Below, in pieces: positions 3,919 through 28,510 of a stretch of 64,000 nucleotides of DNA. Positions within the stretch are counted from its first letter, which is position 1, and the number at the start of each line of letters is the position of its first letter. The notes under the pieces are model-generated. The model made no database searches, was not told the origin of the DNA, and worked only from the letters and a program-made list of their open reading frames with translations. The translations under genes and the position numbers were made by a program. The DNA lies in the NCBI GenBank assembly GCA_016184315.1, contig JACPCU010000013.1, forward strand, positions 1-64,000, read 5' to 3'. The stretch comes from Nitrososphaerota archaeon. Its GTDB lineage: Archaea; Thermoproteota; Nitrososphaeria; Nitrososphaerales; JACQRY01.

Positions 3919-4740
3919 GTGAACCCTCCGCTGCTGCAAGTATCGCCATCCGTGGACTACTCTACCCTAGTTGCTCTCGCCCTCGCCGTTGCCGTAGGTG
4001 TGCTGGTTTACGGTTTCGGTCGCAGATGGGTCACCATCCCGCAGGGATTCAACTACCTTGACTATCTTACCGGTGGCAGCATTCCGGAAGGTTCGGTGAT
4101 ACTACTTGACGGCGATGCGGCCTCAGGGCGAAGCGACATAGCTCAAGCGATGCTGCATAAGTCACTAGGCGAAAAAGTGAAGGCTCTTGCCGTCCTATAC
4201 GATCTGCATGCAGACGAGTATGTTGGGAGAGCAGAGCGATACGGCTACAGCTTCTCCAAAGCTAAGGAAAGCGGTGATCTACGGATAGTCGATTGTTTAA
4301 GCCCATTGATGAGAGCACCTGACAATGAGCTTCTAAAAGACCCGTACAACATTACTTACGTCAACATAGCTGTAAACGATGAACTGGACAAGCTTGGAAA
4401 CCAAAGGTATCTGCTGATTCTGGACTCTGCGCTTCCGCTCCTCAACCATCTCAACTCCAGCACAGTGGTTGACTTCATTCAGACCATTAGCCTGAGAGTT
4501 AGAAGAGACCGGGGCATCTTTCTCTTATGCTCAAGCTCCCAGTCCATAAGACCTGAAATAGCAAATCGCATAGCTTCTATGGTTGACGGCTTGATCGAAA
4601 CTAAACTGCGCCGCTCGTTCGGAATAAGTCGAAAAACTCTGACCGTGAAATGGATACGGGAAAGGAGGGTTCAGGCTCCAACCGTGAGATTCGATAATAT
4701 GTCCGGACGAGGAGTGGTCTTCAGACTATCTCCGAGATAG
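3919..4740 (+). CDS. membrane-anchored KaiC/RecA-like protein with degenerate P-loop
   Basis: 273 residues. A single transmembrane helix (about 13-33) precedes a RecA-fold domain of the KaiC/ArlH type. The position of Walker A reads GDAASGRS (65-72): the invariant lysine is arginine (R71), so ATP hydrolysis is doubtful. A Walker B-like strand LLILDS is kept near residue 175. The GTG start at 3919 is supported by GGAGGAG about 10 bases upstream. It sits 81 bp before an intact KaiC-like ATPase on the same strand; a regulatory or scaffold partner of that ATPase is a reasonable inference. Confidence 0.8.
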   Translation: MNPPLLQVSPSVDYSTLVALALAVAVGVLVYGFGRRWVTIPQGFNYLDYLTGGSIPEGSVILLDGDAASGRSDIAQAMLHKSLGEKVKALAVLYDLHADEYVGRAERYGYSFSKAKESGDLRIVDCLSPLMRAPDNELLKDPYNITYVNIAVNDELDKLGNQRYLLILDSALPLLNHLNSSTVVDFIQTISLRVRRDRGIFLLCSSSQSIRPEIANRIASMVDGLIETKLRRSFGISRKTLTVKWIRERRVQAPTVRFDNMSGRGVVFRLSPR

Positions 4741-4821: not shown

Positions 4822-5568
4822 ATGCTGAGTCAACTCGAGAGAGTCAACACCGGAGTGCCCGGGCTGGACGAACTTATTCAAGGAGGCATACCGAAGGGAA
4901 GAATCATTGTAGCGATGGGGGAGCCCGGCGCAGGCAAGACTGTACTCTCTATTCAGTTTCTTGTTTCAGGCATTCTTCGCGGCGAAAAATGTCTCTACGT
5001 GTGCATGGATGAAGAGAGGAAAGACCTTTACAGAGAGATGCTTCAATTCGGATGGAACCTCCAAGAATTCGAAGACAAAGGCCTCTTGAGTCTCATCGAC
5101 GCCACTCCTCTACGCTTCATGCCTGAGCGCACTAAACTCGGCGTCGCGTTTGTCGACCGGAAAGACTTCACTCTCTCAAGTGTAATAGACGCGATTCAAC
5201 GTGTTGCGAAGGAATCGCAGGTCAGCCGAATCGCGGTGGACTCTATGACCACGCTTATTCTGCAGTACGCTGATCTAATGCAGAGGCGTTGGGCCATAAT
5301 GGAGCTGATCAGCACCTTGGCGAATACAGGGGCGACGTGTATTCTGACAAGGGAGATGAGGACGCTGGGCTACAAGAGAGGGTTAGAGGTAGAGGAGTTC
5401 ATCTCCCACGGAGTGATAACGCTGCAGTCTTTGAAGATAGGTTCGAATCTCGTCCGAGTGCTGCAGGTGCAGAAGATGAGGGAGACCATGTGTGACACTC
5501 AGCCGCGGCCATATTTCATCAGCAAATCAGGCGTCGAAGTACGTCCGAAGGCTACCGTATTCGAGTAA
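4822..5568 (+). CDS. KaiC-like RecA-superfamily ATPase
   Basis: Single-domain KaiC-family protein, 248 residues. The opening VNTGVPGLDELIQGGIPKG is the family signature, Walker A is GEPGAGKT (33-40) and Walker B is around RIAVDS (about 139). Archaeal single-domain KaiC proteins are ATPases and often autokinases in signalling or motility control, and they are not clock proteins. ATG start at 4822. It directly follows the membrane-anchored degenerate paralogue. No archaellum genes are nearby, so an ArlH role is not supported. Confidence 0.9.
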   Translation: MLSQLERVNTGVPGLDELIQGGIPKGRIIVAMGEPGAGKTVLSIQFLVSGILRGEKCLYVCMDEERKDLYREMLQFGWNLQEFEDKGLLSLIDATPLRFMPERTKLGVAFVDRKDFTLSSVIDAIQRVAKESQVSRIAVDSMTTLILQYADLMQRRWAIMELISTLANTGATCILTREMRTLGYKRGLEVEEFISHGVITLQSLKIGSNLVRVLQVQKMRETMCDTQPRPYFISKSGVEVRPKATVFE

Positions 5569-5685: not shown

Positions 5686-5886
5686 TGACGCTTAATAATT
5701 GGACCAACAGATAGTTAGGCGTGCAACATCCTATCTTCTGGATGACCTGCCTTGATGCCTGAGCAAGTGTTTGTGTGTGGGCTGTGCGTGCTTATCAACG
5801 AGTTGGAGAAGCACGGTGAGCTTGAAGAGAGCGATCTCCAAATTGTTGGCATGCATTTGGTTCTGTCGCATGGCTTCGAACCTTAA
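5686..5886 (+). repeat. tandem duplication, copy 1
   Basis: About 200 bp, repeated in diverged form at 6002-6224. Shared landmarks include a leader block (ATAATTG-ACCAA--ATAGTTA-GCGTGCA) and the whole microprotein frame. The leader is preserved together with the coding part, so the promoter region appears to have been duplicated with the gene. Confidence 0.8.
5755..5886 (+). CDS. 43-residue C2H2 zinc-finger-like microprotein, copy 1
   Basis: Starts MPEQVFVCGLC and ends SHGFEP. Cys8 and Cys11 (CGLC) with His34 and His39 give a C-x2-C-x22-H-x4-H pattern, expected to bind one zinc; the segment between is an acidic helix (INELEKHGELEESD). It is 72 % identical (31 of 43 by my alignment) to the second copy at 6093, with all four putative ligands conserved, which supports real coding despite the size. 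Function unknown. Small C2H2 proteins are common in archaeal mobile elements and as DNA-binding regulators; protein binding is equally possible. Confidence 0.75.
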   Translation: MPEQVFVCGLCVLINELEKHGELEESDLQIVGMHLVLSHGFEP

Positions 5887-6001
5887 CTATAGATATAGCT
5901 ACTCTACGAACTAGAACCCATGCGTTCAAGGCGCCCAGACTAGATTCTTGATCATGGATTTGCTATCCGTATTGACAATGTATAGAAATTGGTTACTGTA
6001 G

Positions 6002-6224
6002 CTTTCCACTATGACACTTGACTAAATAATTGAACCAATGCATAGTTAAGCGTGCATCGCCATATGTTACTAATGGAGAGTACCCTGCTTTGATGCCTGA
6101 GGAACAGTATGTATGTGGGTTATGCGAGCTCATCAACGAATTGGAGAGGGAAGGCGGGCTCGAGGAAAGCGACTTCCAAGTTGTCGGGATGCATCTGATT
6201 AGGTCCCACGGTTTCAAACCTTAG
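6002..6224 (+). repeat. tandem duplication, copy 2
   Basis: Diverged copy of 5686-5886. It is about 22 bp longer because of extra sequence between the conserved leader block and the start codon. The spacing between copies is about 316-338 bp. Confidence 0.8.
6093..6224 (+). CDS. 43-residue C2H2 zinc-finger-like microprotein, copy 2
   Basis: Starts MPEEQYVCGLC and ends SHGFKP. A longer in-frame start exists at 6030, but the ATG at 6093 matches exactly the start of the paralogue at 5755 and the same TGATGCCTGA context. Putative zinc ligands Cys8, Cys11, His34 and His39 are kept. Differences between copies are mostly conservative (K/R, V/I, L/F), the pattern expected of selection on protein sequence after duplication. 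Confidence 0.8.
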   Translation: MPEEQYVCGLCELINELEREGGLEESDFQVVGMHLIRSHGFKP

Positions 6225-6432: not shown

Positions 6433-6600
6433 TTGGTTATACCGGGAGTTGATCGACCCATAAATGAAATAATTGAACAAACTTTGCAGTGCGGTAGCTG
6501 CGGTAGGGGGGCCTACGTTAGAGGTTCAATCAGATACTGTGTAACGTGCAATAAGGAAACACCGGTATGCACCTGCCCTAGACTCCCTTGGCTCCGTTGA
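6433..6600 (+). CDS. candidate zinc-ribbon microprotein (TTG start)
   Basis: 55 residues in a frame lacking ATG. From the TTG at 6433 it reads a short leader then QCGSCGR, YCVTCNKE and VCTCPR, ending at TGA 6598-6600. Five or six cysteines in CxxC/CxC spacing look like a rubredoxin-like or zinc-ribbon knuckle pair, which is unlikely by chance in a frame this short. The start is uncertain; no clear Shine-Dalgarno is seen. It lies downstream of the duplicated zinc-finger microproteins on the same strand. Function unknown. Confidence 0.45.
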   Translation: MVIPGVDRPINEIIEQTLQCGSCGRGAYVRGSIRYCVTCNKETPVCTCPRLPWLR

Positions 6601-6761: not shown

Positions 6762-7226
6762 TTGTCTTCTAGCAGAGAGGCAAGCACACAAAAAACTACA
6801 TGGGGAGCTATTATAGCATCAATCGGATTTCTCTTTACTGCGCTTTCTTTTCGGTTTATGGTAGCCCCAATAGGCTTTGAGCTCACCATGGTGACTTATT
6901 TTTTTGGGTGTATAGTAGGGTTCTTTGGGATAATGTATAGGGAAAATAGGGTTAACCGTGATTTTGAACAACCTGAAAAATTAGAGAGACCGATAAAGAA
7001 ATCACGCGCTGGGTTTCAGGGTTCTCTCATGCTCAGAGAATTTCAATTCTTGCCTCTGGAAGCATGGGCAGTTTATATCAATGCCTACACTCTAGAGTCG
7101 TTTATCACCGCGATCCTTGTCTTCGCTTCAGTATTCGGGTGGGTTGCATGGATTCTCACGAAGGATGAGAGCCGCAGATGGGATGCTCTTATAGAGCAAG
7201 AGAGACCGCTTAGCGGTGTCTACTAG
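6762..7226 (+). CDS. membrane protein, unknown
   Basis: 154 residues from a TTG start. Two hydrophobic helices sit near the N-terminus (about 14-36 and 42-60), followed by a charged cytoplasmic segment rich in Lys/Arg/Glu and a further hydrophobic helix at about 112-133. No family recognised. Its stop codon overlaps the stop codon of the convergent transposase gene (CTAG), so the present C-terminus may have been created by insertion of that element. Confidence 0.65.
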   Translation: MSSSREASTQKTTWGAIIASIGFLFTALSFRFMVAPIGFELTMVTYFFGCIVGFFGIMYRENRVNRDFEQPEKLERPIKKSRAGFQGSLMLREFQFLPLEAWAVYINAYTLESFITAILVFASVFGWVAWILTKDESRRWDALIEQERPLSGVY

Positions 7227-8398
7227 TTTCTATTTTCGGTAGCAAGAGCTTTCTTGAGTAGTTCTAGCCACTTGTTTTGTCCCTCCATGCCTATTCCAGC
7301 TACTTGAGCTGGTGTTTTGCCCTCTAATGTTGTGTGTGGTCTTACGAAGTTGTAGTAGATCATCTGACCGTTTCTTAATGGTGTGTTATCCTTTTTCCAG
7401 CCTCTCTGAACCTTATTTCGTTCCCTTACCGTGTTGTTTATTCTCTCAGCTAATTGGTTGCCGTGTTTCTTTGTGGCAGCTCCGCTTAACACTCTGTTAT
7501 GGCTTGGTCTAAGCTCTTCTCTCACATCTAGAAACGCTGTTTCTATGCCCATAGGGTAGCATCCCGCCTTATCAGACGTTATGGTCTTGGGGATTGATTT
7601 CGCTATTTCCCTAGCCGTTTTGAACACGTTTCTAGCGTCCAGCTCGTTTCTTGTCTTGCTGATCTCTGACGCTAATTGGAATCTACTCTCCTTGTCCAAT
7701 ATGTTCCACAGATACTTGTATTGCCCCTCTGAGCCTTGAAGCTTTATGCCGTTCCTAGCCTTGACATACATCTCGTCAACATGCCAATCGCCTGAAAGTT
7801 TAGGGGTTAATGTTCTCACATAGGCATCCATTGCCGCGACGTATTTGTCTATCCACTTGTAGATCGTAGAGAAATTGATTTCTATTTCATACATCTGTTT
7901 GAGGTGATCGCTTATCTTTCTGAGCGATATTCCCTTAAAGTAGAGGTCTAGGGTTACTGTTATCAGCTCGGGATCGTATTTCAGCCTCTTGAATAACGAG
8001 TCCTCAACGAATTTGCGTCTGCAATCCTTGCACTTGAACACTTGCTTACCGCTCTTATACCCGCAGCGCATGACGCGGATGCTTTCACAGAACTTGCATG
8101 CTACAGCATCCTCAGCCACGACACTAGGCTTCTTAGCTTGAACAAACTGTTTGAGAGCAATTTGAAACTGAACCGCATAGCAGTGCTTGCATATTACGCC
8201 TCTGAACTGAAAATCTGGGCAAGAGCAGACCCACTTATCGCGGAGAAGCTCCACGCGATACGATAATTCGCTATTCGACTGTGAAGGAACAGTAAAGCTT
8301 CCATCCTTACTCTCCGTGATGCTGTTATTCTCCAAGATGGATATTGCCCTAGTCATACGGGTTCCAGACGGGTTATTTTGACTCATATCTTCCACCAT
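7223..8398 (-). mobile_element. insertion-sequence transposase with SWIM zinc finger (IS6-like DDE)
   Basis: 391-residue DDE transposase, apparently intact. Domains in order: a SWIM finger (Cys58-x-Cys60-x9-Cys70-x-His72); a zinc ribbon (Cys101, Cys104, Cys123, Cys126); an HTH-like segment at about 145-185; and an IS240/IS6-type catalytic core with D208 (WHVDEMYVK), D276 (TSDKAG) and E319 (AERINN). IS6-type enzymes move by replicative transposition. The added SWIM domain is unusual. No convincing terminal inverted repeats could be placed: the 3' end abuts the membrane gene with no spacer, and the 5' side is a palindrome-rich region shared with a divergent operon. A stand-alone or domesticated transposase is therefore possible. 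Confidence 0.88.
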
Positions 8399-8702: not shown

Positions 8703-9016
8703 TGGCATACTTGAGGTCTAACATAGTCATTCGGAATACGTCTTCAAATATGGAGATACCTATCCCCGTGCAATCCTCAGAAATGGTGGGAGCATTACTG
8801 AAGCCATATGTCGAGGCGCTGGAACAAGAAAGACGACAGAATGTTGAGCAAAGAGAGACGATAGGCGAGCTTAGACAGCGATTGGAGCAAGCGGAATGGG
8901 AGAGAGAAGATTACAGGAAACAAGCTCATGAAGACCACGCCTACATAGACAGGCTCTTGAGGGTCATAGAGCAGTTGACGGATAACGGTCAGAGGTTCAT
9001 AGGAAATGTCGAGTAA
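8702..9016 (+). CDS. coiled-coil protein, unknown
   Basis: 104 residues from the ATG at 8702, which overlaps the AbrB stop codon; the frame is open further upstream, but that part lies inside abrB. The N-terminus (MAYLRSNIVIRNTSSNMEIPIPVQSSEMVGALLKPY) is followed from about residue 38 to 95 by a strongly charged amphipathic helix with many Glu/Arg heptads, a predicted coiled coil. No named family. Operon position between a regulator and a zinc finger, and the small size, are typical of archaeal plasmid or virus cargo. Confidence 0.7.
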   Translation: MAYLRSNIVIRNTSSNMEIPIPVQSSEMVGALLKPYVEALEQERRQNVEQRETIGELRQRLEQAEWEREDYRKQAHEDHAYIDRLLRVIEQLTDNGQRFIGNVE

Positions 9017-9275
9017 TGACTCCCTCGTGAAATGCTTGAGATGCCAAAGAACCTTCATTCGAGCCGAATATGACAGCCACACGTGTGTCCCCCACTACCT
9101 CGGAACCCGAGACATCCAGATAATACAGTGGTGGGAATCCAAGACTCCCAGCGGAGAACCCTACATAATGGCGATCGGTGCAGACGGCTACGACTACAGG
9201 CTCATACAAGTCAAGAGGAGAGTCGGCTTCGTGGAGCTAGGCGACGACCACCACCACGGAAACACCCCCAAATAA
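9006..9275 (+). CDS. small zinc-finger protein
   Basis: 89 residues; the ATG at 9006 overlaps the end of the coiled-coil gene by 11 bp. Near the N-terminus KCLRCQRTFIRAEYDSHTC provides Cys10, Cys13, His27 and Cys29, a C2HC-type finger. The remainder has several tryptophan/tyrosine residues and a DDHHHGN motif near the C-terminus. Last gene of the accessory operon; probably nucleic-acid binding, function unknown. Confidence 0.7.
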   Translation: MSSNDSLVKCLRCQRTFIRAEYDSHTCVPHYLGTRDIQIIQWWESKTPSGEPYIMAIGADGYDYRLIQVKRRVGFVELGDDHHHGNTPK

Positions 9276-28372: not shown

Positions 28373-28458
28373 GCCCCGGTAGCATAGCGCGGTCTACTGC
28401 GTCCGCCTCGTATAGCTGAGAAAGCGGAAGATCGCGGGTTCAAATCCCGCTCGGGGCT
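28373..28458 (+). tRNA. tRNA-Thr (CGT) with a 10-nt intron
   Basis: Acceptor GCCCCGG pairs with TCGGGGC; D arm GCA/TGC with GG in the loop; anticodon stem TCCGC (28402-28406) / GCGGA (28424-28428); T arm GCGGG-TTCAAAT-CCCGC. Discriminator base T73 is typical of archaeal tRNA-Thr. The anticodon loop is 17 nt. Removing 28413-28422 (TAGCTGAGAA) at the canonical 37/38 site leaves CTCGTAA, the standard Thr loop with anticodon CGT. CTC and GAG within the loop can pair, giving a relaxed bulge-helix-bulge. CCA is not encoded. Confidence 0.9.
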
Positions 28459-28510
28459 CCTGTAACTAAAAACATCTAGATGAATCTAGGCTTGGGAACA
28501 ATTCCCTTAG

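What the first reader, a model, noticed from the sequence alone, without database searches (positions are those of the whole stretch)
5686..6224. Tandemly duplicated 43-residue C2H2 microprotein with its own leader
Two frames of identical length encode 72 % identical peptides with invariant CxxC and HxxxxH. The leader sequence (ATAATTG, ACCAA, ATAGTTA, GCGTGCA blocks) is duplicated as well, so two complete expression units were copied. Differences are mostly conservative, which suggests selection on the protein. Next to KaiC-like ATPases and an accessory island, they may be small regulators. I know of no named family.
Basis: partly seen in the sequence, partly recalled or inferred. Interest (0 to 1): 0.72.

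Follow-up and report, generated by a model that had tools for sequence, protein, structure and literature searches.

The report
Unnamed archaeal zinc microprotein, tandemly duplicated
Two neighbouring copies of a 43-44 residue protein, kept by natural selection and predicted to be held together by one zinc atom, belong to an uncatalogued family of tiny proteins scattered through several lineages of Nitrososphaerales archaea; what they do is not yet known, but binding a partner protein is the likeliest job.

Summary
Copies A (5752-5886) and B (6090-6224) encode 72% identical peptides with CxxC and HxxxxH and share a 32-nt leader (27/32 identical). Ka/Ks between the copies is 0.11. A same-genus MAG has one copy in the same place behind the same two KaiC-like genes; its sequence suggests that translation starts at TTG, one codon before the ATG. 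Iterated profiles uncover a family that Pfam, NCBIfam, PHROGs and PADLOC do not hold: 38 curated members from 20 Nitrososphaerales genomes, up to eight matches per genome, not found elsewhere in the phylum. Signature: [YF]xCx[FL]Cx19-23H[LM]xxxHG; most members end three residues later. A profile built without any same-genus sequence picks exactly these two frames out of 1,438 in the window (E 2e-8, 2e-7; next 0.45). AlphaFold gives two helices, not the classical beta-beta-alpha finger, with the ligands at the two helix ends. Most likely it is a free-standing, zinc-stapled helical hairpin that binds a partner protein. The KaiC link holds in the genus but is weak in the family. It is a new variant of a known kind, the archaeal single-domain zinc-finger micro-protein.

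The parts
5694..5725 (+). leader core of copy A (AATAATTGGACCAACAGATAGTTAGGCGTGCA), probable core promoter (TATA-like element and initiation-proximal AT element)
5752..5886 (+). microprotein copy A, 44 aa from TTG (43 aa from ATG 5755), CxxC-x22-HxxxxHG
6025..6056 (+). leader core of copy B (AATAATTGAACCAATGCATAGTTAAGCGTGCA)
6090..6224 (+). microprotein copy B, 44 aa from TTG (43 aa from ATG 6093)
   Evidence: (model)
4822..5568 (+). KaiC-like ATPase (PF06745, E 5.7e-60), conserved neighbour in the same-genus MAG, 82% identical there
3919..4740 (+). divergent KaiC-like ATPase (PF06745, E 1.1e-12), conserved neighbour
6433..6600 (+). another small Cys-rich protein (CGSCG...YCxxC...CxCP), conserved next to the microprotein in the same-genus MAG, where it is the one that is duplicated

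Best explanation
The two genes encode free-standing single-domain zinc microproteins of an uncatalogued Nitrososphaerales family. Shown: coding, selected, duplicated together with the leader, family-wide C2H2 ligands. Predicted: the chain forms a two-helix hairpin (helices 10-20 and 28-40) with the CxxC at the start of helix 1 and HxxxxH at the end of helix 2, so that one zinc ion staples the open end. Inferred: with no room for an enzyme, and a net charge of -6 to -7, the hairpin works as a small protein-binding regulator or adaptor; each copy is transcribed from its own promoter, so the pair gives two differently tuned versions. The KaiC-like ATPase beside it is the first partner to test.
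For: Selection: Ka/Ks 0.11 (A-B) and 0.13 (B-orthologue), differences concentrated at third codon positions of these frames. Family: iterated searches, reciprocal hit from the distant G028 protein, held-out profile finds exactly the two frames at E 2e-8 and 1.9e-7, next 0.45, best of 20 column-shuffled profiles 0.031. Ligands: all four kept although the spacing varies from 19 to 31, also in five hits collected without requiring the motif; 24 of 38 members end at the same point after the motif. Fold: pLDDT 85.6, about 94 over both helices, and the same two helices for the 27% identical G028 protein. Charge -6 and -7. Leader kept where synonymous sites are saturated. Conserved KaiC synteny in the genus.
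Against: No expression, zinc or binding data. The AlphaFold alignment held four sequences and no zinc. Charge varies over the family (+4 to -7), so the protein-binding inference is for this genus. No constant neighbour gene in about 40 loci. Copy A against the orthologue gives Ka/Ks 0.57, not distinguishable from neutral.
Confidence: 0.55

Rival explanations
1. DNA-binding mini transcription factors: a single C2H2 module that binds DNA, perhaps its own leader (autoregulation), like the archaeal virus protein AFV1p06.
For: C2H2 ligands; leader motif conserved and unique to these genes in the genome; sub-threshold matches of 9 of 23 members to the fungal transcription-regulator domain Rua1_C; some members elsewhere are basic.
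Against: Predicted fold is all-helical, with no beta hairpin; both window copies are strongly acidic; only one module, whereas single fingers usually need extra contacts; leader conservation is also what a core promoter would show.
Confidence: 0.2
2. Dedicated regulators of the neighbouring KaiC-like ATPases (a narrower form of the best explanation).
For: Same order KaiC-KaiC-microprotein in both members of the genus; in f9 genus g21 a relative lies divergent from a KaiC gene and 4 kb from a second KaiC pair in two genomes.
Against: Most of about 40 loci lack KaiC nearby; KaiC genes number 4-19 per genome, so about 0.4 such adjacencies are expected by chance in a family of this size (my estimate); the f9 KaiCs are only 30-44% identical to the window's.
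Confidence: 0.15
3. Small zinc buffer or redox peptide without a specific partner.
For: Zinc ligands are the only strictly invariant residues; next to another small Cys-rich protein.
Against: Conserved positions between the ligands (aromatic or aliphatic at H-3, D/E at H-7 in 35 of 38) imply a specific fold and surface.
Confidence: 0.07
4. Chance or shadow frames, or a non-coding repeat.
For: Short frames; antisense frames are also open over the genes.
Against: Ka/Ks, third-position bias, held-out profile.
Confidence: 0.02

Closest known systems
Haloferax volcanii one-domain zinc finger micro-proteins (PMC6562870, PMC10716476, PMC11241148)
   Same: Free-standing archaeal proteins under 70 aa with one predicted zinc site; some matter for stress adaptation, biofilm and swarming (title and abstract).
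   Different: Those carry two C(P)XCG motifs (four Cys); here C2H2, no CPXCG, helical prediction, and other lineages.
AFV1p06, archaeal virus C2H2 zinc finger (PMC3541406)
   Same: Small archaeal protein with one C2H2-type zinc module.
   Different: Classical beta-beta-alpha fold with a 28-residue motif and DNA binding, viral or proviral; the paper reports no homologue in Thaumarchaeota; the family profile did not list its structure 2LVH at E up to 10.
Pfam Rua1_C (PF14616), fungal transcription regulator
   Same: Best sub-threshold profile match, over the CxxC...HxxxxH stretch, for 9 of 23 members.
   Different: Best 19.4 bits among the members scored against a cut-off of 27; the window copies do not match; fungal, longer domain.

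Membership tests
the Nitrososphaerales C2H2 microprotein family defined here | CxxC-x19-23(-31)-H[LM]xxxH, found by a profile built without same-genus sequences | tested here: met
   (E 2e-8 and 1.9e-7)
the Nitrososphaerales C2H2 microprotein family defined here | stand-alone protein ending within a few residues of the motif | tested here: met
classical C2H2 zinc finger | match to a zf-C2H2 Pfam model above cut-off | tested here: not met
classical C2H2 zinc finger | beta hairpin plus helix, Cys-His spacing near 12 | tested here: not met
   two helices, no strand (prediction); spacing 22 from sequence
Rua1_C (PF14616) | score above the curated cut-off of 27 bits | tested here: not met
   (best 19.4 bits); window copies no match
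Haloferax C(P)XCG micro-proteins | two C(P)XCG motifs | tested here: not met
   sequence
zinc-binding proteins | binds zinc | not testable with these tools
   only ligand conservation is shown
regulators of KaiC-like ATPases | family-wide genetic linkage to KaiC genes | tested here: inconclusive
   conserved in the genus and recurring in one f9 genus, absent at most loci

The most novel reading that the evidence does not exclude
A lineage-specific expansion of zinc-stapled helical-hairpin microproteins forms a regulatory layer of interchangeable protein-binding modules in some Nitrososphaerales families, with a fold not seen in solved zinc fingers and with KaiC-like ATPases among the targets.
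Probability: 0.2. Interest if true: 0.75.

Novelty: new variant of a known kind. Interest (0 to 1): 0.5.

Why it matters
Archaeal dark matter is rich in proteins too short to be annotated. Here a 43-residue frame seen by eye leads to a selected, multi-copy family missing from the family libraries checked, with a testable zinc site and predicted fold, in a phylum-level group (Thaumarchaeota) where a 2013 survey (PMC3541406) had found no homologue of the archaeal virus C2H2 finger. It gives a ready profile for annotation and small peptides that can be made and assayed directly.

Tried and rejected
Known RNA in the leader: no Rfam match. Leader hairpin before the start: each of three leaders can form one, but in different register, so not claimed. 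Structure search in PDB: no match, little power for 44 residues. Sequence search in PDB: nothing convincing. Constant neighbour gene: none. Remnant of copy A in the same-genus MAG: not detected, so whether the duplication came before or after the split stays open. Third AATAATTGRAC site at 6468 lies inside the coding frame of the next gene and is probably coincidence.

Full report
Observation. The window carries two frames on the + strand, 5755-5886 and 6093-6224, each 43 residues from ATG, 72% identical, with CGLC and HLxxSH. The upstream 32 nt are copied too: AATAATTGrACCAAnnnATAGTTArGCGTGCA, 27 of 32 identical, found in the genome only at these two places and in the same-genus genome G001 only before the homologous gene. 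Both window copies read TTG-ATG; the orthologue reads TTG-AAT, so TTG is the likely start and the proteins have 44 residues.

Selection. By Nei-Gojobori, A-B dN 0.156, dS 1.38, ratio 0.11; B-orthologue 0.13; A-orthologue 0.57. In the first two comparisons as few non-synonymous changes arise in 0.04% of random redistributions; in the third in 40%. The last figure comes from an unusually low synonymous distance on 43 codons and I cannot explain it. Synonymous sites of the neighbouring KaiC gene between the two genomes are saturated (pS 0.77), so the leader's conservation (24-27 of 31-32 positions) shows constraint on DNA or RNA as well.

Family. The profile of the two copies finds only themselves in the genome and one orthologue in G001, which matches the groundwater MAG contig JACQRY010000214.1. 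In 400 genomes of the order it gave a borderline full-length hit in G028 (E 0.02), whose protein finds both window copies in return (E 0.002 and 0.017). Iteration then gave 6 genomes of 400 in the class and 25 of 400 in the order; a few weak hits in f10, some with stops inside, are probably chance. In family f9, 8 of 9 genomes match, up to 8 matches each; in f11, 11 of 46. In 389 genomes of the phylum only two weak hits appeared besides the window's genome; since f9 genomes do match the same profile when searched directly, that sample evidently did not include them. Non-circular test: a profile of 20 members that excludes the window's genus, run on all 1,438 stop-to-stop frames of the window, returns frames A and B at E 2e-8 and 1.9e-7, and next 0.45; 20 column-shuffled profiles reach at best 0.031.

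Signature. Over 38 curated members from 20 genomes: CxxC, spacing 19-23 (22 in 20 members; two longer), H[LM]xxxH in all, then G in 28; F or L at the second x of CxxC in 30; D/E seven residues before the first His in 35; 24 members end three residues after the position that follows the second His.

No library knows it. Pfam, NCBIfam, PHROGs and PADLOC give nothing above cut-off for the window copies. Nine of 23 members touch Pfam Rua1_C below its cut-off.

Fold. AlphaFold2 on four sequences gives two helices, 10-20 and 28-40, pLDDT about 94 there, mean 85.6; for the G028 protein helices 10-20 and 26-40, mean 78.0. The second model used the same four sequences and is not independent evidence on the alignment.

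Context. Order in the window: divergent KaiC, KaiC, copy A, copy B, a small Cys-rich protein, then a 154-residue frame and an IS-like transposase. G001 has the two KaiCs, one microprotein and the small Cys-rich protein, the latter in two copies. Among about 40 loci of other members Pfam finds no recurrent neighbour beyond a few winged-helix proteins. In G056 and G023 (f9, g21) a member is divergent from a KaiC gene, with a further KaiC pair about 4 kb away. With 4-19 KaiC genes per genome this is roughly what chance allows, so I do not claim a family-wide link.

Mechanism. Shown: coding, selected, duplicated with its leader, family-wide. Predicted: zinc-stapled helical hairpin. Inferred: protein-binding regulator; the acidic charge (-6, -7) and the lack of a beta-beta-alpha fold make DNA binding less likely for these two, though the family as a whole is mixed in charge. 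Known comparison: archaeal micro-proteins with zinc sites are an established kind (PMC6562870, PMC11241148), so this is a new variant, with a different ligand set and lineage.

Noticed in passing
6433-6600; L010 439-573 and 10-147: Small Cys-rich protein (CGSCG...YCxxC...CxCP) with no Pfam family; single in the window, two copies on opposite strands in the same-genus MAG, the reverse of the C2H2 microprotein's copy numbers.
   Followed up: partly
7223-8398 (-): Transposase-like gene with an IS240-type DDE domain and an N-terminal SWIM zinc finger, just downstream.
   Followed up: no
9006-9275 (+): 89-residue protein with a CxxC...HxC stretch, weak match to zf-LYAR; another small zinc candidate in the same region.
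   Followed up: no
L105 4441-7935, L106 1070-4537: About 1,160-residue protein of unknown family between the C2H2 microprotein and a KaiC pair in two f9 genomes.
   Followed up: partly
G049:C212 (L034, L062): Two family members about 1.2 kb apart on opposite strands, so local clustering of this family is not unique to the window.
   Followed up: partly
28373-28460 (+): ARAGORN calls one tRNA with an unreadable four-base anticodon (cgta), possibly an intron-bearing tRNA.
   Followed up: no
5752-5883 versus L010 861-992: Copy A and the orthologue are far closer at synonymous sites (pS 0.35) than A-B or B-orthologue (0.63-0.66), unexplained.
   Followed up: partly
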